Shown in pieces: positions 1,196 to 64,000 of a stretch of 64,000 nucleotides of DNA (the stretch's first letter is position 1; each line of letters starts with the position of its first letter). Both the position numbers and the translations under genes were made by a program. The DNA comes from Halichondria panicea (Eukaryota; Porifera; Demospongiae; Suberitida; Halichondriidae), in contig NC_087393.1 in the NCBI RefSeq assembly GCF_963675165.1, positions 1,679,502-1,743,501 on the forward strand. Direction: 5' to 3'. The notes beneath the pieces were generated by a model. It worked only from the letters and a program-made list of their open reading frames with translations, was not told where the DNA came from and did not search any database.

Positions 1196-10150
<8,955 letters not shown>

Positions 10151-13212: not shown

Positions 13213-23005
<9,793 letters not shown>

Positions 23006-23632: not shown

Positions 23633-33125
<9,493 letters not shown>

Positions 33126-34624
33126 TATGCACCTAGGCAGCACAGCAGTACTGTACTACAGTAGATCGAGCAGAGTATGCAGCAGAGCTAGCTGAAAGGC
33201 AGAATACTGGCAAAGGTCATCAATACTACTGATTCAGTTGTTTTTCCAGAATGATGCAATTGAGTACCACGACCCTTTACCTACTAAGGGGGCTGCAAGA
33301 CTTGAGAGCGCATGCGCAAATTTGTCTTGTCAATGTGTCAGAATTCCATCCACATTGCATTACTGTCAATTTTTTTGTCGCACCCTGCAAGCAATAGAAA
33401 AATGGTGAAACAGCACGTCATCCGATTGATGATCAGCAATAAGTCCGGTTTGGATATGACTTCTAGTGATGATTGGTATGACAGTGGACGTTTGGCCGAT
33501 TCTTATTCTTGGCCTAAGTCTGCATGGGTATAATTAAATCTTCACGGAAAGCATGGGTCCCCTTTGCCCATTCAATGAGTCTATGAAAGTGATACAACAA
33601 TGAGAAAGGTTCAGTGCACTGGAGCCAATGATATACCCTGTAGACATTTGGCACTATGCACCCAGCTTTCAAAATGGTATATAGTGTACATACATTAGTC
33701 ACATGCAAGCTGTAAATAGTACCTTATAAGGTTATTCTTGTTACACCGCAGCATATATTGCATTCCTTCTCCAGTATTTCTTAGAAATGTTCCAAAGTAT
33801 TACTAACTCATCCACACGGGCTACTAGATCTATAAAGTTTTACTTTCCATACAAACCACATTTTGTCTATTATTATAGCAATATTGATTCTCAGAAGCAT
33901 GCATGTCAACACACAACCATCCATGAAGTATCATAATTATTCTGCTAGTTAGAGCTAGAGCACAAGATATATGCACTGCACCAAGCTTACCCTTGCATTG
34001 TGAGCAGACTTTACCTGCTTTATTATCTGTATAATTATGGCGCTTTACAAGCATTATTAATCAATTTTGTTCACTTGTCTGAACTCTGGCCACATGCAGG
34101 TTTAGTTCATTGTGGCTAGTTGAATTCCTGTACATCGCCTGCATGTCTCGCCTGCATGTCTGAGTAAGCACCCTATCGTCACCACATTATCATTCTTAGA
34201 ATAACCATGGCATGAAATTGATTGTAGCAAAAAAGTCCCCCTTCCCCATGCAGGGGCCTGGGCCATGCTCTCTCTCCATGACAGCGTCATCAAGCGTTAC
34301 AGTATACCTATGTATACAATTGCATTTGCATTTGCTTATAATTGCTTGTCATTTTCAGTTCTAATTTGTCAAACTCTGTCTAGATGTTGGTGTGGCTTGT
34401 TTGTTAAGCCCTGCGCGTATAAAAATGTACATTTCCTGTCAAGTTCAAGAAGTGATTAGACAGGCTTAGAATATTATACACAAGATTGTACTCAACCTCC
34501 CCACATTATTTATCCAATTTATGAATGCAATGAGCCTTAATTGTCCCACTCTATAACCTTGTTCCGGCCCGACTTGTCAATCTTCTAGATTGAAGAAAAA
34601 TCGGACTCAATCCCCTTTCAGCTT

Positions 34625-34975
34625 ACCATGGTGATGGCGAGGACGAGTGGAGGGAGGTACCATTTGAAAGGTCTAAGTGCCGTGGCAAGAGGAACAATCA
34701 CTGAGCAGACACTGGAAAAGATTCTGTATCGAATAAGTTAATCTATATAATAGTCAATTAAATTACCTGAATGGCTTATAATCTTTGCTGTGTATACATG
34801 TGAAAGGGTCCAATGAGAGGATCTGTTGTGTGATAGTCTCAGTAAGACACTAGTATGATCACAGAAAACAAGATGACAGCTAGAGAACCAGAATAATCCC
34901 ACAATACTGTATGTAGAAATTATGGCCGAGTCCCCACCTCATACATGTTCGAACCATTCCACTGAGAGTGCCACT
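34625..34975 (-). pseudogene. ABCC exon 3-exon 2 fragment
   Basis: Minus-strand sequence matches the TMD0 exons of the ABCC genes: exon 3 end (CACTCGTCCTCGCCATCACC), then degraded exon 2 (TCATTGGACCCTTTCACAT). Deletions and frame shifts break it, and no downstream exons follow. It is a dead partial duplicate. Confidence 0.75.
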
Positions 34976-35854
34976 GCATGTGCAGTGCACAAACGTTGAA
35001 TTCAATTCCCATGCAGTAATGCAGCTCTGCATGGGCATGGCTGATTCATGAGACAAGAGCCCTGGCTTATTGTTCACTTTGGGGAAAATAAGTAGATCTA
35101 GGCTTGGGAAATGAAAAATGGGCTACTTGGTATGTACGTATGACCAACTGGAGTAATTCCACCACAAAACTTATGAACTAAGTGTGCTTTCTCTTTCAAA
35201 AGTATACTGAGAGAGAGAGGTGTTCCCCTTACCTGTTACAATAATTGTGTACAATGATAATTTTATACGTTAACTGCACAAATTCGCTATAAAATCTGAG
35301 AATTATAGGTTGATTTAATGAGCAAAATATAAAGGATTGTGAGCAAGACATGTCAAAAAAGTTTTGAGCATTATGTGAGCATGGGGATGAAGGATTTCTT
35401 TTTGTAATTGGTGCAACCATGCATGGCAATCCAAAAATTCATGATATAGTGTGGTGACGATAACGTGCCTACTAGGTGACCTGAAGGTCTTCATTTAGCC
35501 ACAAGGAACACAATCACCACATCCAATCAATTCTGTAATAGAGATGTACTCAACCACCTATCTCCATTTTAATTTTCATATTGTATGCATGAGTGTATGG
35601 CAACAGGGAACCCACCTAATAATATTATGTTTGTAGGAATCGATAAACAATAATTTTCTCACAACAATTGTTTACCAGTCCCAATTAAGGAGGAAAAATG
35701 TGTCAAATTCATACTATAGCCTTATAAATATAATTAGCCTATAATTATACAGCAACGCAGCAAGCAAACTTGTTCATGCAGCTATAGCCTCGTTCTCATG
35801 CACAATAGCAATTAGCACATTGTGAATTTTTCGACCTCTGTATAACTTCAAGTT

Positions 35855-35950
35855 TTGAAGGAAGCTGCAGCTTGGGGTTGCCTGGCTCGGCCCGTTGGTC
35901 ACTTTATATTTTATATTGGGAAATTAAATCTTCACGGAAAGCAGAGTATA
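35855..35950 (-). pseudogene. Fragment of the HEPN gene 5' coding end
   Basis: Matches the N-terminal coding part of the HEPN gene (38795-38895) through GAAGC...GCAGCTTGGGGTTG, GTTGGTCACTTTAT and AAATCTTCACGGAAAGC, with deletions that disrupt the frame. Confidence 0.65.
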
Positions 35951-36982
35951 CATGCATGCATGAATTGATGCATTAATTGCCCATTCTTACACAGTCATAT
36001 ACTATTAGATGCAGTCCATGAAAATGATACAAAGGCAGCTATATAGTATAATTGACAGTTTCATACAAGTCATGCAGTTCACAGGAGCCAACGATACCTT
36101 GTGGTGAGCTTGCATACGCATTGTGTATGACACACTCAGCTTTTGGGATGGTGTTTGGTATAGTACTGTATGTATACGTCAGCTGTGAAGGGTACTATAT
36201 ACCTTAATACGGTCATTCTTGTTAAATTCGCAGCATTGCATTCATTCTCCGATATATTTCTGCTAATTTATCCACAGTTCCACATCATGCACTATAATTA
36301 TACTAACTATAAACTACGAGTTTACTTTCAATGTACTTTGCCCATAGTAAAAACTATGAATCAACATTCTCAGAAGCATGGAAGCACATGCAATATTAAA
36401 ATATTGCAAATGTCATAATGCTGCTATACTTACAGACAGATTTGTCTTTTAGGAACCTAGCATGCATGGCCCACTTATTAGAAGTATACAATCCTGTAAA
36501 TTGTGACAGGATAATTATAAACAAACTTTAATTTGCATAATAGGCTTGAAAGTTGGAATAGGAGGTATAACCATGCAGTTGTCATGGAGATAGAGCGTGG
36601 GAGACTTTTTATTGCAGTTACTACCATGGTTATTCTAAGAATGATAGTGTGGTGACGATAACCTGCTGTTTACTTCAGCATGTAGATCTATATGTGCGAA
36701 CCGAAACATGCAGGCGGTGTGCAGAAATTCCGCAGCCTAGGGAACTACTATATGTTTACCACCACCAACATAACGTTTCAATTCTGTAGAGATCAGATAA
36801 GTGCACTCTAAAGCCACTGTACAGAGTATAGATGAACACATGAAGTGTATATATATAATTATATGTATCCATGCAAGTTAAAGAAAAAAGTATAAAGACG
36901 TATTTACATGCACTCTCACCTCACCTACCCAACTGTTTTATGAGTGCATTGAGCCTATAATCCACCAATCCCCCATCAGCTT

Positions 36983-37320
36983 ACCATTGTGATGGCGAGG
37001 ACGAGTGGAGTGAGGTACTGGTATAGGAAGTGGTTGATCCACATCCCAACACCTCGGTAGATGGTGTAGCCAAGTCACACAGTGCCGTGGCAAAAGGAAC
37101 AATCAGCAGCTGCTGGAGAAGAGGTGTATTGAATAGTCAATAGGATTACCTGAATGGCTTACAATGAGGATCTGTTGTTGTGTCTTAGCAACATGACCAC
37201 AGAAAAACAGGATGACAACTAGGGACCGCTAAAATACCGTTAACAAAGCACAGTATATAGTAACTGGTCCTGCATGTTGCCAGGGCAGTCAGGACCAGAA
37301 CCATATACTGGTATAGAAAA
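36983..37320 (-). pseudogene. ABCC exon 3-exon 2 fragment
   Basis: Exon 3 is nearly full length here (36985-37112), but one base is lost in the GACTTGGCTACACC part, shifting the frame. Exon 2 follows as scraps (ACCACAGAAAAACAGGATGA, GGACCAG). Same module as 34625-34975. Confidence 0.75.
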
Positions 37321-37936: not shown

Positions 37937-38920
37937 TCACTCTGGGAAAGGCAACGTGTTCCAAACATGCAGCCCGTAATGGTCTTCAATCAGCTTCACA
38001 ACTGTGTTGTGTAGACGACTCGCCATTTGCAAAATGAAGCGTTGAAGGTTGACAATATCGCAGTAGTAGATCTGGAGAATGGATTCAGGTGGCTTCTCGT
38101 ACACTGCTTCAGCTCTTGTGTAGAAGGTGTAGACTTGTTCTGCAGCCAAAAGATCACTTTCATCCATTTGCTTCAAAAACACAGACTGATCTGGGAAATC
38201 AAAGAGAGCGCCATAGAGGAACGTTTTTTCATACTTTGAGTGAGCCAGCACACATCTCACACCATAAAGCAGCCGAGTGACGGTTTCAAGAGCTGTTGGG
38301 TTGTTTACGTTTAGGAGCGGCTCACTCTCAATTTTTACATTCGGTTTGTTGATAATACAGCTAAGCTTGATTGGGCCAAGCTTCAGCAATTCTTCGGCCA
38401 GATTCACTTTTACCAGGAAAAGGCGTTCCAAATACTTTGTAATTCCTTTGTCGCCATGGAAAACAGGTGTGCATCCTTTGCAAGCTTTTTTTGCATGATT
38501 ATCAAGAATATTTTTCCACTTGTCCGGCTCAAGCACAAGTTGGACACTGAGCTCCTGTGCTGTCTGAGGTGGCAACAATTTTTTCTGCTCCTTGTGCCAT
38601 TCTTCAAAAGCCTTCTCGAGTAGTTTAGTTGCTTGCTTCGGTGGTTGCGATTCGCTAGTGATGATCTCGATAAGCTTAAGAAACGTCTCCTCTAGGAAAT
38701 CTTGCACAAAGGCATCCCATTTCACAAACGCTCTAATGAAAGCACCTCCATATATTGCATATTGAGCTTCTTTTCTGTCCAATTCTGATCCAAATGTTGG
38801 AGGAAGTGGAAGCTTGGGGTTGGTCACTTTATTGATCAACTTGTGCTGGCCCCTGAGTTTTATGAAATCTTCGCGGAAAGCGGAGTACACTTTACTCTCT
38901 ACACTGGTGCCGTCAGCCAT
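37937..38920 (-). CDS. HEPN-domain protein, intronless
   Basis: A single uninterrupted frame of 327 aa starts at ATG 38920 (MADGTSVESK). A longer open frame upstream begins with TTG and is unlikely to be used. Helical segments dominate. Residues 58-80 (GGAFIRAFVKWDAFVQDFLE) look like the first helix of bacterial-type HEPN proteins. Residues 222-227 read RCVLAH, the Arg-x4-His motif that forms the RNase or nucleotide-binding site in HEPN families. No membrane segment or signal peptide is visible. It is the only intact copy in an array that contains fragments of the same gene. It differs from most nearby genes in lacking introns, which suggests retroposition or transfer. The role is unknown; RNA cleavage or scaffolding is possible from the family. 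The HEPN call rests on motif reading. Confidence 0.7.
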   Translation of the reverse strand: MADGTSVESKVYSAFREDFIKLRGQHKLINKVTNPKLPLPPTFGSELDRKEAQYAIYGGAFIRAFVKWDAFVQDFLEETFLKLIEIITSESQPPKQATKLLEKAFEEWHKEQKKLLPPQTAQELSVQLVLEPDKWKNILDNHAKKACKGCTPVFHGDKGITKYLERLFLVKVNLAEELLKLGPIKLSCIINKPNVKIESEPLLNVNNPTALETVTRLLYGVRCVLAHSKYEKTFLYGALFDFPDQSVFLKQMDESDLLAAEQVYTFYTRAEAVYEKPPESILQIYYCDIVNLQRFILQMASRLHNTVVKLIEDHYGLHVWNTLPFPE

Positions 38921-39656
38921 TCTTAAAGCAAGCCGTACAGTTGTCAACAATCAGCAATGCAATCGACAGTTTCTATTTGGTGGAACTGGAGCTAACTATT
39001 ATATACCCTGTAGTGAGCTGTATGAGCTGTATGCATGACCAATCAGCTTACAGTATTGGCCTGTCGTATGTACGTACATGCAAGCTGTAATGGATCCCTT
39101 ATAAGGAATATTGTGGCTAAATTTCCCACATTACTTTACCTTTTTTCTTTTTTCCTAGAACTATAGTTCTAGGACTGAGTATTTCATTTAAATATTACAA
39201 GGTATAATAATTATACTGTCTACATAAATCATACAATAGATTTTACTTTCAGTTTTGAACCACATTATTGTGTATTGCAAAGCAACCTTTCTAAGAAGTA
39301 GATCTATGCGACCATGCAATGGCAATAAATGACCCAAGTAACAATAATAACATTGCACTGCTATAATTATAGTTATAGCACAAGCTTTACCTTTCACATG
39401 CAGTACCAATTAAGCGTATAATAATTGATTAGCCCTGAAAATGACTGATGATTTTTAGCACTAAAAGTACTGATACACAAATAATAGAAAGAGGGGTGAC
39501 CTATAACCAATGATACTGTATTAGCTGGTTATTTTCGTATGGTGGAAATTTTCGTGAGAAAATTATTGTTAATTGATTCCTACACACAAGGCTAGATACC
39601 GGTAGGTGGTTGAGTATATCTCTACAGAATTTATTTTATGTTTGTGTACTGCACAG

Positions 39657-39872: not shown

Positions 39873-40192
39873 AATTTAATTGACTGTTACTTTATTCAAT
39901 ACATAATCTTCTCCAATTTCTGCTCAATGATTGTTCCTGCATGCACGCTTCTGAGAATCAATATTGATTCATAATTATAGTCTTTACTATTAGAGACAAA
40001 ATGTGGGTTGTATGGAAAGTAAAACTTTATATCTAGTAGCGTGTGGATGAGTTAGTAATACCTTGAAATATTTCAAAGAAATACTGGAAAAGGAATGCAA
40101 TATGCTGCGGTGTAATAGGAATAACCTTATAATCATGGTTATTCTAAGAATGATAATGTGGTGACGATAGGGTGCTTACTCAGACATGCAGG

Positions 40193-40246
40193 CGAGACAT
40201 GCAGGCGAGACATGCAGGCGAGACATGCAGGCGATGTACATGTATA
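40193..40246 (+). repeat. 13-bp minisatellite, about four units
   Basis: Tandem units of GAGACATGCAGGC. Related single or few units occur at about 34138-34165 (inverted), 36700-36718 and 43362-43408, always at the same place in each duplicated module. Confidence 0.85.
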
Positions 40247-40485
40247 CAGGAATTCAACTATAGCCACAATGAACTAAACCTGTGGCCTGAGTTCAGACAA
40301 GTGCACAAAATTGATTAACATGCTTGTAATGCACCATACAGATAATAAAGCAGGTGAAGCCTGCTTACATGGGTATAAGCTTTCATGGTATAGTATTACA
40401 GTGCATAATTATAATAATTAGTTGTTACCTTGTGCTATATCTATAACTATAGCAGAATAATAATTATGATATTCCATGAATGGTT

Positions 40486-40604
40486 GTAGTTGGGCGGAGT
40501 CCAACCCTATCAGTATACGATATTTATACTCTGCCTCAAGTATACCAATGGAACAAAAACGTGATATACCCAACCACTCGCAGAGGGTTGAACTCCGCCA
40601 ACTA
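40486..40604. mobile_element. Small MITE-like element
   Basis: The left end TAGTTGGGCGGAGTCCAACC and right end GGTTGAACTCCGCCAACTA form imperfect 20-bp TIRs around a 79-bp core. It is inserted in the inverted module, next to a GGTTGT target-like duplication that I cannot confirm. Confidence 0.6.
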
Positions 40605-41325
40605 GAATGGTTGTGTGTTGACATGTGCATGCATGCATGCATGCTTCTGAGAATCATAATTATAGTCTTTACTATTAGAGACAAAATATGGTTTGTATGG
40701 AAAGTAAAACTTTATAGATCTAGTAGCCTGTGTGGATGAGTTAGTAATACCTTGAAACATTTCAAAGAAATAGTGGAGAGGGAATGCAATATGCTGCGGT
40801 GTAACAGGAATAACCTTATAAGGTACCATTTACAGCTTCCGTATGACTAATGTACGTACACTATAAAATACTATTCCGAAAGCTGGGTGCATGGTGCCAA
40901 ATGCCTACAGTTCACCACAGGGTATCATTGGCTCCAGTGTACTGAAACTTTCATTGTTGTATCACTTTTATCAGTTAAAGCAGTCCATGAAAGTTTGCTA
41001 AAAAATAAACTGTTTGAGCAATCCAGTGCTTTGCTGCCTCTAAGTTTATCACCTGACTGAACTTCTGCAATCTGATTGGTCGAGACGGAATTCCGTCTTG
41101 GTAAATAAAACTGTGACAAGAGTGCTCAGACAGTCTTCCCAAAAGAAGGGCGGCTGATTCATGAGACTACTCTAAAGCATCTATGAGAATAATTGTATAA
41201 GATGTCGTACGGAGCCATTTGGCATCATAATTGTAATATAGACCTCATAATGCTATGCTCATGCACTGTTGTACTATAGTAAACTAGGATTGGCAAGATA
41301 GTGTAGATCTAGCATGGTAAGTTAA

Positions 41326-44327: not shown

Positions 44328-44897
44328 CTAAATAGTTTGTTTGCTTGTAGCCATTGGCTTCTTCTCTTTAGCTTTTTTCTTTTTTTCTTTCCGTCTTTTG
44401 TTCTTCTCTTGAGCAGAAACCATTCTCTGACCTCTCACAAGTGTGCTACCATCGGGGTTCTCATTTATTCTGAAGCTTTTGTTGGGTGGAGCAGCAATAT
44501 CTGCTTCAGTGAGGGATGTATCAAGTTTTCTCTTTGACGAAACTGTTTGAGGCAGTTCCCTCATCAAGTGATGGTACCTTGCAGATTGCTTTAATTGGCG
44601 TTTCAAAAATGTCTCATGAACCGAATGCAGAGACCCTCTTTCTTCATCGACTAGATAGGTACTGGAATCAGACTGTACTTGCTTGGAGACGTGAGACCCA
44701 GGATCATTGGAATCTGATTCTTGATCCGCAGAACTTGAGTGGTTCTCCACATTGGGATTGCCATACAGTCGTTTGTGGTGTGCCTCTAAGACCTTGTCTT
44801 TAAACACTACATAAACAATCAATAGTCCAGATATAAATTGTAGAGGTTACATCAATGCTTTTACAGTTTATATCTCACCTTCTTCTCTGCTGGCCAT
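44328..44897 (-). CDS. Unrecognised small basic-tailed protein
   Basis: Two exons, 44879-44897 (MASREE) and 44328-44806, join in phase to 165 aa ending TSKQTI. The middle is Ser/Asp-rich and low complexity (SSSADQESDSNDPGS). The C-terminus is strongly basic (KNKRRKEKKKKAKEKK, about residues 140-155), consistent with a nuclear or nucleolar protein, which is inference. I do not recognise the family. The start codon lies in a unit that is tandemly duplicated just upstream (44889-44997). It is on the same strand as, and 226 bp downstream of, the GPANK1-like gene. A decayed copy of its 3' end lies at 42085-42190. Confidence 0.6.
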
Positions 44898-44997
44898 TCC
44901 ATTCTATTGTCATTTGGTAAATATGTCCATCTTACAAGCTAACTGCTGGCCATTCCATTCTATTGTCATTTGGTAAATATGTCCATCTTACAAGCTA
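44889..44997 (-). repeat. About 55-bp tandem duplication over a start codon
   Basis: The unit CTGCTGGCCATTCCATTCTA through ATCTTACAAGCTAA occurs twice back to back, near-identical. The first copy supplies the predicted ATG of the 44328 gene. The second supplies a spare upstream ATG in the same local context. Confidence 0.85.
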
Positions 44998-45087
44998 AAT
45001 ACAGCAAGTTTGTTTCACAGTAGTTACATTAATGATTAATACCATACAGTCCATACACATGCATGTACACACATAATTATACATAGA

Positions 45088-45122: not shown

Positions 45123-46271
45123 TCAAAAATTAGCGTCAGTGTTAAGGTACTGTCTCATTCTCAGCTCCCATTGTTTGTCCTTTTTAGCTTCTCTTACAAT
45201 GTCCTTCTTCTTTAACTGTTTGGCATCCACAAAACACTCCTCGCTGGGCCTCCTTATAGCAGCTGTGTCTCCGGCCTCAAAATGAGTCACTCGAGCTTTA
45301 TCCTTCCCTTTAATACCAAATCCAAGTCGGTCTCTTTTGAGAACAGTCTTCACTGGAAACTGTTGACCTTGCTGCTCGGAGCCAAGACCTCCTTCCGGAT
45401 CCCAGCCTTCCCTGAGCAGCATTTGATAGCCTCTGTTCGACTGAGGGATGCCATAGACTGTGTGTACACCGGGTTGGTATTGACAGTTAAACTGGTGAAG
45501 TGTGGATGTGCCGTGCTTGTGTGGAATGTCTTGAGAAATTGTTAACTGGCAGATATCACAAAAATATGGTCCTCCATTTTCATTAGTGTCTTGAACACAA
45601 GCGTGAGATTCGACAGCGTTTTTATAAGAACTAGCGTCTTTATAAGAACTATTGTCTTTTGCTTCTGGTGAATCTTTATTATCTTCACAAGGTTCCAGGA
45701 GTTCAGCTATGTGAGTATGGCCAGCACTCAATGCAAGATCCACAGCATTCTGTCCTGAGCTGTCTACCATTTTTCTCCACTCTGCTCCGATACTCAACAA
45801 ATATCCAACTGTGTTCGTGTGTCCAGCATAAGCCGCACTCATCAGTAAAGTCCAACCAAAGTTATCAGTTATATTCACATTATAATGTCCCTTCGATAGA
45901 ACTAATCTTAACGAGTCCAACTCCCCATCTTGAGCAAAACGAAATACTTCACCGATTGTTGGCAATCTCTCCAACACCTTTGATTTTGGTTTAGCGATAG
46001 CTCGTCCCGTTCTTGATGGCTTCAGTTTTCTTTTACGCCGAGTAAAATTATGTTCTTGGGGCATCGAAAGTACCTCTTCATAAAACTGTTTAGCTTCTTT
46101 CCCACTCATAGTAGTCGACTGCTCAGGAGGAGAATTGTCTGTATTGTCCAATTGAGGGAGATTTCTGCTCGATCCTTGCTCAGGGTGGAACATGATAGCT
46201 CTTCCTGTGTCCAGAGGGAGAGTAGAGGCAAGATAGCTTCTTGTTCGCTTGGCCCAGTTCTCTTCTTCCAT
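45123..46271 (-). CDS. GPANK1: G-patch and ankyrin repeat protein (GPANK1-like)
   Basis: Single exon, 382 aa (human GPANK1 is about 356). Two ankyrin-like repeats lie at about residues 104-194 (WTLLMSAAYAGHTNTVGYLL). A C2H2-like segment (FCDICQLTISQDIPHKHGTS) is at about 237-256. A G-patch is at about 280-325 (GYQMLLREGWDPEGGLGS, followed by FPVKTVLKRDRLGFG and ARVTHF). This order and these motifs fit GPANK1. G-patch proteins usually bind RNA or activate DEAH helicases; the specific partner is unknown. ATG at 46271 has no competitor. It is divergent from the MOSMO-like gene, with 197 bp between the start codons. Confidence 0.88.
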   Translation of the reverse strand: MEEENWAKRTRSYLASTLPLDTGRAIMFHPEQGSSRNLPQLDNTDNSPPEQSTTMSGKEAKQFYEEVLSMPQEHNFTRRKRKLKPSRTGRAIAKPKSKVLERLPTIGEVFRFAQDGELDSLRLVLSKGHYNVNITDNFGWTLLMSAAYAGHTNTVGYLLSIGAEWRKMVDSSGQNAVDLALSAGHTHIAELLEPCEDNKDSPEAKDNSSYKDASSYKNAVESHACVQDTNENGGPYFCDICQLTISQDIPHKHGTSTLHQFNCQYQPGVHTVYGIPQSNRGYQMLLREGWDPEGGLGSEQQGQQFPVKTVLKRDRLGFGIKGKDKARVTHFEAGDTAAIRRPSEECFVDAKQLKKKDIVREAKKDKQWELRMRQYLNTDANF

Positions 46272-60665: not shown

Positions 60666-62830
60666 TTAATTTTCTGGGTTAATAAAAAGGTCACATGGGT
60701 TATAAAGCGGTACATTTGAACACTTTTCATCCATTTCATTCCACATTAGTTCCCATGACTTGTACTTGCTGCCTGGTTTCATAGCAACAAATTGCAGAGG
60801 GCTCTCTCTCAGTGCAAAGAGCAGGTCAAACATGGCATTCTGAATGGACGAAAGAAATTAGTTAGCAATTTGCAACCAACTATACGGGGAAATATGACAT
60901 TGCAAAACTAGTGGCAAACTGCCAAAGCCTGTCTTTACAGAGGCTGATCTTATTAAATTGGTTGGGAGGTGACTACCTACATGCACACTGATGAAAAAAC
61001 GGTGGTGTATACAGTACACTGACAGTGACTCTATTTTTGAGAGGCTAGGAAGGGCTTTTATAGGAGGTTCCACATTTATTATTGCAGCACATACAACATA
61101 CATTTGTAAAGTAACTGAACATGCAGCCATTGCAGGTAAAGGTTTTATTTCAGGAAAAGGTCAGTCCATGAAAATTGGAAATACCGGGTTATTTTCGTAA
61201 CGTAGAAATGTTGATAGGTTCATAATATAGCTTTGATATATTTTAGACTGAGAGCCCCCTCAATAAAAAGGAGGCTTAACTATAATTATATATTCCACTG
61301 ACTTACTCCCATGGCGTTCATGAGGTGATCGATACGTTTGGAGCCAGTTGGCCAGAGGGGGTAGTTGTTGGCCTCAATGAACCAGACACGGAGATCAGTC
61401 GTCACCATGAAATCCAGCCCCAGCAGCTGGTAACTGGAGGGTGAATTCTGAAACACTCCGCCCCTACCTATATATATATATATACAGTGTTAGGGTGGGA
61501 GGGAACACATAGGGCAGCATAAATTCATGTTTCTGTATACTGAGGTTTTGTACATGCACTATAGAGCTTGTTATATGCACTATAATTTATGGGTAAAATT
61601 GAAGGTTCCAATACGCAGCTAATAATTAAGTCTGTGGTAGTGCTCACCCCTAAAGTAACAACTACGAAATGATAAAAATTCTGAGCGACGATGACAGACA
61701 TACATGTACACACCTGTTTGTAGAATGAACAGAGCAGTCTTCTTGATAAAAGGAACCAGACGTGATCTAACAAAGTCGTTATTTTCAGGTACATACTCAT
61801 CCAAGTAGCTCTGAAACCTTTCAAATGACCACAAATGCTCGTCGGGTGAATAATTCTTGGCATTGACTTGTAAGTGACTATTGGTAATATGAGCTTCTTT
61901 ACCACCTTGTGGAGAGAACTGTTTCATGGACACTCTAAGGTAGCCATTGTGATGAAACAAAAGGTACGGTTGAGTCGAAGCAATCAAAACAAGACCACGT
62001 ATATCAAATTTCCTCTTGTGCAGCAACAAAGGACTCGGTAAGTACTTTTGAACAACATACTCTTTAGTGTTTGTGCACAAGCTGAAATCCTTGTAGAGCT
62101 TTGTGAGATTGCTGTGAATGGTTATTCCAGTTCCTCCATAGCCAGAAGATTCTTTGAGCACCCACCAGTTGTCTGGATTCTTGTCCGCATACTTAAAGAA
62201 TTGTAGACATTCTTTCGTGCTATCCAATAAAAAGGATCTTGGCATCACCTCTAGGTCATCTAAACTGCATCCATATTTCAAGAAATGCTCTCGAAAAGCA
62301 ACCAGTTGTCCCTTTTTGCCTCCTGTGATTTTAAAAGCATAGCGAACTGCAGACACTAAAGAATTCTTGGACTGGGAGAGATTTTGCAGGGAAAAATATT
62401 TATAAAATCTTGATGAGGTAATCACAATTGTGAACGAATCATGTACAGACAAATAGTTGTGCAAACGAGAAAGTCCAGACGTAGAATCATTGAGTATCAA
62501 ACCCAAGCCCCAATGACGCTCAGTGGCTATATTTTTCAAGGATTGCATAAAAGGTTTACCGAAAAATATCATTTGGGTACGTTCGAAACTTGAAACAGGG
62601 CGATTGAACCATGGCTTTATCCATCGACATTCCCCTTCGGAAATATTCACATTCACTGAAACCGTATTTTCTTCTACTTTCAATCTATTTATTATTTCCG
62701 TATTCCTTTTTACTACAGTCACTGTAGGTGCATTTTTCATGGCTCTAGTGTAAAGATAAGTACAGATTAGCCCCGCCCCCAAAATTACCAATCCTAATCT
62801 GATGTTTCTTTTCCAGCTTGAGATAGCCAT
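60666..62830 (-). CDS. Tubulin-tyrosine-ligase-like protein with N-terminal membrane anchor
   Basis: Three exons, 61714-62830, 61307-61467 and 60666-60839 (stop TAA), join to 483 aa. A TTL/ATP-grasp domain spans about 65-480. Motifs are WVLKESSGYGGTGI (223-236, ATP loop), KFDIRGLVLI (274-283) and LGLDFM...VWFIEANNYPLWP (about 388-412). Such enzymes ligate Tyr, Glu or Gly to tubulin tails. Residues 11-27 (RLGLVILGAGLICTYLY) after a basic cluster form a signal-anchor-like span not typical of cytosolic TTL. The ATG at 62830 is the natural start. The substrate is undetermined; a secretory-pathway location is inference from the anchor. Confidence 0.85.

Positions 62831-63204: not shown

Positions 63205-64000
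<796 letters not shown>

What the first reader, a model, noticed from the sequence alone, without database searches (positions are those of the whole stretch)
37937..38920. Orphan intronless HEPN protein in an animal genome
The 327-aa frame has an Arg-x4-His motif (RCVLAH, 222-227) and an N-terminal FIRAFVKWDAFVQDFLEE helix of the type seen in prokaryotic HEPN families linked to RNA cleavage and defence. It has no introns among intron-rich neighbours and sits in an unstable array with dead copies. It could be a laterally acquired or fast-evolving innate-immunity or element-linked RNase.
Basis: partly seen in the sequence, partly recalled or inferred. Interest (0 to 1): 0.7.

Follow-up and report, generated by a model that had tools for sequence, protein, structure and literature searches.

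The report
Bacterial-type HEPN RNase gene in eukaryote
A single-exon gene in what looks like an animal genome appears to encode a diverged relative of a bacterial family of predicted RNA-cutting defence enzymes, and it lies beside two decayed partial copies of itself.

Summary
It has a TATA-like box 79 nt before the ATG and Arg-x4-His at residues 222-227. Two decayed copies of its upstream stretch and first ~40-55 codons lie at 36141-35816 and 33649-33484.

No library profile finds it directly. A profile built only from bacterial and viral-contig proteins of one PF18735 (RiboL-PSP-HEPN) subfamily scores it above every control tried: 20,000 plain shuffles, 10,000 and 500 hydrophobicity-preserving shuffles, and 560 unrelated frames. 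Global alignments pair R222/H227 with the family's RGxIAH. Relatives occur on plasmids, on viral contigs and, once, inside a type I restriction operon.

Best reading: a eukaryotic, probably catalytic HEPN ribonuclease related to bacterial defence RNases, with a ~63-residue insertion. Weak points: the score comes mostly from residues 55-150, some family-invariant residues are not kept, and fold prediction failed. Transfer, expression and immune function are unproven; no eukaryotic sequences could be searched, so 'orphan' is untested. Bacterial HEPN genes standing alone in eukaryotes, Daphnia included, are already reported for another family.

The parts
37937..38920 (-). Single-exon protein-coding frame, 327 aa, RiboL-PSP-HEPN-like
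38999..39005 (-). TATATAA, TATA-like box ending 79 nt upstream of the ATG
   Evidence: read from sequence; the surrounding stretch aligns with both 5' remnants; promoter function inferred
38687..38740 (-). Residues 61-78 FIRAFVKWDAFVQDFLEE, equivalent of the family's AWEAFxEDxxxE helix
38495..38530 (-). Residues 131-142 EPDKWKNILDNH, equivalent of the family's LAGDGW[RK]xxLxxH block
38240..38257 (-). Residues 222-227 RCVLAH, Arg-x4-His; placed on the family's RGxIAH by global alignments
   Evidence: Arg and His invariant in 11 of 11 relatives aligned
38051..38239 (-). Residues 228-290, mostly absent from bacterial relatives (between motif and last helix)
   Evidence: hhalign and hmmsearch alignments
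37961..38050 (-). Residues 291-320, ending GLHVW, aligned weakly to the family's last helix and PW end
   Evidence: negative bit scores as a separate domain
35816..36141 (-). Degenerate copy of the upstream stretch and first ~54 codons
   Evidence: E=5.4e-9
33484..33649 (-). More degenerate copy of the upstream stretch and first ~38 codons
   Evidence: E=0.0029
36965..37238 (.). Exon-like repeat beyond the 3' end of the gene; other copies at 32492-32784, 34607-34900 and between 41.5 and 43.8 kb; with the gene and its remnants it makes three units
   Evidence: families D1, D3, D4; units inferred from order
33638..34209 (.). Left arms of inverted repeats flanking the region
   Evidence: I1-I4, I13, I14; I2 is 75 nt, 100%
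40040..40910 (.). Right arms of the same inverted repeats

Best explanation
A stand-alone eukaryotic (probably animal) gene encodes a diverged relative of the RiboL-PSP-HEPN ribonucleases. Shown: statistically supported similarity to one bacterial PF18735 subfamily, presence of the Arg and His of the R-x4-H motif, and a locus with one intact and two decayed 5' copies. Inferred: the protein dimerises so that two R-x4-H motifs form a metal-independent RNA-cleaving site; it is kept quiet, perhaps through the insertion, and cuts RNA when an infection or mobile element is sensed. An ancestor probably came from bacteria, long enough ago for codon use like that of its neighbours and for two duplicates to decay.
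For: BLASTP with L106: E=5e-6 as a single comparison; searched among the collected family, L106 1.75e-4 and L111 2.1e-4. Profile of 11 bacterial sequences without the query: 18.7 bits, best of 20,000 shuffles 10.1. Profile of 18 bacterial and viral-contig sequences: 15.2 bits, best of 10,000 hydrophobicity-preserving shuffles 12.7; of 564 real decoy frames only the four family members left in score higher. HHalign local 41.1 against at most 31.7, global 31.3 against at most 15.0, in 500 such shuffles. Twelve other PF18735 matches score 24.3 and 8.3, so the relation is to one subfamily. 10 of 10 subfamily members scanned match PF18735 at E up to 1 (two of them were found through that model). 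Plasmid relatives are annotated 'HEPN domain-containing protein' in 3 of 4 records and 4 of 5. Settings: plasmids, viral contigs, and L146, where the gene lies between type I specificity and methyltransferase genes with 4-nt overlaps.
Against: No direct hit to a HEPN model or solved structure (best E 0.63). Adding sequences lowered the bit score from 18.7 to 15.2. HHalign probability is 67-80% with the subfamily and only 18-26% with the first mixed PF18735 set of 14. The score comes mostly from residues 55-150. Family-invariant residues are partly lost: Q73 stands for an invariant Glu, Cys for Gly after the motif Arg, and the NTP block is not clearly kept (CTP at 150-152 is not aligned to it). 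AlphaFold2 models are poor (pLDDT 36.7, 46.8) and no listed Foldseek match is named HEPN. Six of ten neighbour proteins checked singly had no defence match at 1e-10. No expression, activity or eukaryotic-relative data.
Confidence: 0.6

Rival explanations
1. It is a HEPN protein of an animal family (such as CXorf38 or sacsin-like, described in PMC3710099, or DZIP3, recalled), inherited vertically and only distantly similar to the bacterial subfamily.
For: Animals carry several HEPN families (PMC3710099 section 5 part 1 and section 16). No eukaryotic collection could be searched.
Against: No HEPN model of Pfam is hit at E up to 10, though HMMER's filters may hide weak hits, while one bacterial subfamily matches specifically.
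Confidence: 0.15
2. It is a HEPN-like protein that kept the fold but lost cleavage, acting as an RNA binder or scaffold.
For: Gln for a family-invariant Glu and Cys for the Gly after the motif Arg.
Against: Arg222 and His227 are both present; the equivalents are invariant in 11 of 11 relatives.
Confidence: 0.15
3. The similarity is convergence between helical proteins and the gene is an unrelated lineage-specific protein.
For: No direct database hit; about 20% identity; fold test inconclusive; NTP block not clearly kept.
Against: Scores exceed shuffles that keep the hydrophobic pattern, and the global alignment is collinear over the full length.
Confidence: 0.1

Closest known systems
RiboL-PSP-HEPN family (Pfam PF18735), the subfamily with GW[RK] and NTP blocks
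   Same: AWEAFxED-type helix, GW[RK] block, R-x4-H motif and C-terminal end in the same order
   Different: About 20% identity, below Pfam detection; ~63 extra residues after the motif; Cys after Arg; Gln for an invariant Glu; NTP block not clear; lies in a eukaryotic genome, while a 2013 survey lists the family as bacterial (PMC3710099 table 1)
Ava_2192-type HEPN (Swt1 group) transferred from bacteria to Naegleria, Dictyosteliida and Daphnia
   Same: A bacterial HEPN standing alone in eukaryotic genomes, with expansion in Daphnia (PMC3710099 table 1)
   Different: Another HEPN family; not compared by sequence here
   Same: 7 of 10 subfamily members match it weakly (best E 1.7e-4)
   Different: The query showed no match to the set built here, but 2 of its 4 frames were wrong
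Animal HEPN proteins with immune links (CXorf38, sacsin-like with DEATH domains, RNase L)
   Same: Eukaryotic HEPN proteins known or proposed to act in host defence (PMC3710099)
   Different: Other HEPN families, often multidomain; no Pfam HEPN match to the query

Membership tests
RiboL-PSP-HEPN (PF18735) | Match to the Pfam model above its cut-off | tested here: not met
   no PF18735 match at E up to 10
RiboL-PSP-HEPN (PF18735) | Homology to accepted members through a subfamily profile | tested here: met
RiboL-PSP-HEPN (PF18735) | Subfamily-invariant residues other than the motif (two Glu, Asn and Pro of NTP, two Gly in alignment A3) | tested here: inconclusive
   one Glu kept (E78), one replaced (Q73), NTP and Gly positions not aligned clearly
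HEPN superfamily | Arg-x4-6-His motif | tested here: met
   R222 and H227, placed on the family motif
HEPN superfamily | HEPN helix-bundle fold (definition recalled) | tested here: inconclusive
   all-helical but poor models, pLDDT 36.7 and 46.8; Foldseek
HEPN superfamily | Metal-independent RNase activity of a dimer (recalled) | not testable with these tools
   needs protein
MAE_28990-like HEPN (PF18737) | Profile similarity | tested here: inconclusive
   no hit; comparison badly built

The most novel reading that the evidence does not exclude
An animal lineage captured a bacterial anti-phage-type RiboL-PSP-HEPN ribonuclease and keeps it as a stand-alone, intronless innate-immune RNase in a turnover-prone locus, with a new insertion serving as its sensor or control element.
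Probability: 0.2. Interest if true: 0.75.

Novelty: new variant of a known kind. Interest (0 to 1): 0.4.

Why it matters
Several animal immune proteins are thought to trace to bacterial anti-phage defence. A eukaryotic protein with an intact R-x4-H motif, related to a family that a 2013 survey lists only from bacteria, would add a candidate stand-alone RNase to that list. It could be tested directly by assay and by replacing two residues. Bacterial HEPN genes in eukaryotes have precedent (Ava_2192 type, same survey), so the surprise lies in the family and the locus rather than in the principle.

Tried and rejected
Direct searches: Pfam, PADLOC, NCBIfam, PHROGs and PDB gave nothing significant. 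The PADLOC DzbB hit (E=0.0094) was not followed; none of 10 relatives gave it. tblastn of phages and plasmids with the query: no match. Pattern scans with the query: 3 stretches in viral contigs and 16 in genome contigs, none confirmed. Query against 395 genomes: none. A1 against viral contigs: 38 stretches, none confirmed. L106 against phages: none. The A3 profile has no significant PDB (best E 0.21) and no relevant NCBIfam match.

Structure: the single-sequence and 8-row models were both too poor; Foldseek results were not used as evidence. Splitting relatives into two rows to help the alignment made it worse and was dropped.

Faults of mine: row L109 in A3 was trimmed at the wrong end, corrected. 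In the MAE_28990 comparison two of four frames (L154, L157) were not the HEPN frame, so I discount it. I made no tree.

Recent insertion of the gene was rejected because two decayed 5' copies share its locus and order. An intron inside the 63-residue stretch was not excluded.

Full report
What is there. The frame is on the minus strand: ATG at 38920, TGA ending at 37937, 327 aa; the plus strand of the same interval has several stops. Forty simulated first-order Markov windows of 64 kb gave a longest stop-free run of 238 codons, against at least 337 here. Scored with codon use from five other frames of the window, this frame scores 0.061, best of its six readings and above all 300 random 984-nt segments taken from 8-26 kb (max 0.009). 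The measure is modest: one training gene scores 0.009, and the part around residues 161-240 scores -0.002, below another frame. A TATATAA box ends 79 nt upstream of the ATG. The frame needs no intron, although RNA was not available.

The surroundings. Two window frames are pieces of ABC transporter membrane regions (7214-7702, 20114-20698) and one at the right edge is actin; there are also a tubulin-tyrosine-ligase frame and an ankyrin/G-patch frame. That the genome is an animal's, perhaps a sponge's, is my impression and is established by no call. Exon-like repeats at 32.5, 34.6 and 37.0 kb recur, and inverted-repeat arms at 33.6-34.2 and 40.0-40.9 kb flank the region.

Decayed copies. nhmmer with the gene and 130 nt of upstream sequence finds two degenerate relatives: 36141-35816 (E=5.4e-9) and 33649-33484 (E=0.0029); three further hits have E of 4.6 or more; the reversed window gives none at E up to 10. 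They cover the upstream stretch and about the first 54 and 38 codons. In the better one a 29-nt stretch differs at 4 bases, all at third codon positions, three of them synonymous, so VYSAFREDFI reads VYSAFREDLI. This copy was therefore probably coding once. The order HEPN piece, then exon repeat, three times, suggests tandem duplication of a unit in which only one HEPN body stayed intact (inference). This speaks against a recent insertion.

What family it is. Pfam, NCBIfam, PHROGs and PDB give no HEPN hit. I collected PF18735 matches: 1 of 20 genomes and 23 of 247 genomes of one phylum, 13 over the cut-off. Against a mixed set of 14 of these the query gave HHalign probabilities of only 18-26%. 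Two of the 14 (L089, L106) share with the query a GW[KR] block and, in L089, a YGLxPWN-like end. BLASTP of the query and L106 gives E=5e-6 as a single comparison. A three-row alignment (A1) then found 7 of 349 genomes in a second phylum, 0 of 249 in a third and 2 of 296 in the first, the two seeds. An eight-row alignment (A6) found 3 of 199 and 1 of 121 in two more. Viral contigs gave seven further loci with distinct contigs; the one hit and six of seven were contigs already found. 10 of 10 members scanned match PF18735 at E up to 1.

Controls. A profile of 11 sequences without the query gives it 18.7 bits; the best of 20,000 shuffles gives 10.1. With 18 sequences it gets 15.2 bits, a drop; the best of 10,000 shuffles that keep the pattern of hydrophobic positions gets 12.7, and of 564 real decoy frames only the four family members left in score higher. 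HHalign scores 41.1 (local) and 31.3 (global) against maxima of 31.7 and 15.0 in 500 such shuffles, with probabilities of 78% and 67%. Against 12 other PF18735 matches the query scores 24.3 and 8.3, so the relation is to one subfamily. The strongest part is residues 55-150. The motif and last helix are placed by the global alignments but add little score.

Active site. R222 and H227 align with the Arg and His of RGxIAH, invariant in the 11 relatives aligned. Departures: Cys for the Gly after Arg, and Q73 for a Glu invariant in the 10-row alignment A3 (row L109 of A3 was mis-trimmed). E78 matches the second invariant Glu. The NTP block is not clearly kept. About 63 residues (228-290) between motif and last helix are mostly absent from relatives.

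Structure. AlphaFold2 gave mean pLDDT 36.7 (one sequence) and 46.8 (8 rows), all-helical; no listed Foldseek match is named HEPN, and none reaches E 0.001. The fold is untested.

How it probably works. In PMC3710099 (read: part 1 of 2 of section 5, section 16, search passages) most HEPN domains are said to be RNases, many in defence, and this family is listed as bacterial, with the motif conserved. Relatives here lie on plasmids (L116, L117) and viral contigs; in L120 beside a frame that I read as an integrase (Phage_integrase matches 2 of 70 neighbour frames, which does not say which). In L146 the gene lies between type I specificity and methyltransferase genes with 4-nt overlaps. From 188 neighbour frames I selected 96 and scanned 70: PADLOC lists 25 of 169 matching families, among them specificity models (2 proteins), a type I methyltransferase model (1) and Drt4/Drt6 models (1 each); the other 144 families were not shown. 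Of ten neighbours checked singly, four matched at 1e-10 and six did not. A mobile and partly defensive setting is indicated, not proven. By extension I expect a dimeric, regulated ribonuclease.

Literature. Searches: 'RiboL-PSP-HEPN' (0 papers), 'Ribo L-PSP' with HEPN (1), MAE_28990 with HEPN (1), 'HEPN domain' with sponge (21, 20 listed), HEPN with sponge and horizontal gene transfer (9), HEPN with horizontal gene transfer and metazoan (6), a broad one (1,016, 20 listed), and Dazbog with DzbB (0). No listed title or abstract start describes an animal member of this family; only PMC3710099 was opened. That paper does report another bacterial HEPN type (Ava_2192) transferred to Naegleria, Dictyosteliida and Daphnia as stand-alone genes. 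The library holds open-licence papers only. From recall, protein databases may already label some eukaryotic proteins as RiboL-PSP-HEPN; I could not check.

Verdict. A real frame under apparent coding constraint and a probable diverged HEPN of the PF18735 kind in a eukaryote; transfer, catalysis and immunity remain to be tested.

Noticed in passing
window 44887-44998: Exact tandem duplication of a 56-nt unit (D8).
   Followed up: no
window 45123-46271 (-): Open frame of 382 aa with ankyrin repeats and a G-patch domain; resembles GPANK1 (recalled).
   Followed up: partly
window 61619-62830 (-) and 63205-63978 (-): Tubulin-tyrosine-ligase family frame and an actin frame near the window edge.
   Followed up: partly
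window 5876-43826: ABC transporter pieces on both strands and repeated exon-like stretches, suggesting an expanded and rearranged transporter array.
   Followed up: partly
L146 4223-7691: Bacterial HEPN relative embedded between type I specificity and methyltransferase genes with 4-nt overlaps.
   Followed up: partly
L120 1-2355: HEPN relative beside a frame that reads like a site-specific integrase on a viral contig.
   Followed up: partly
L138, L139: A bacterial relative split into two frames, apparently broken.
   Followed up: no
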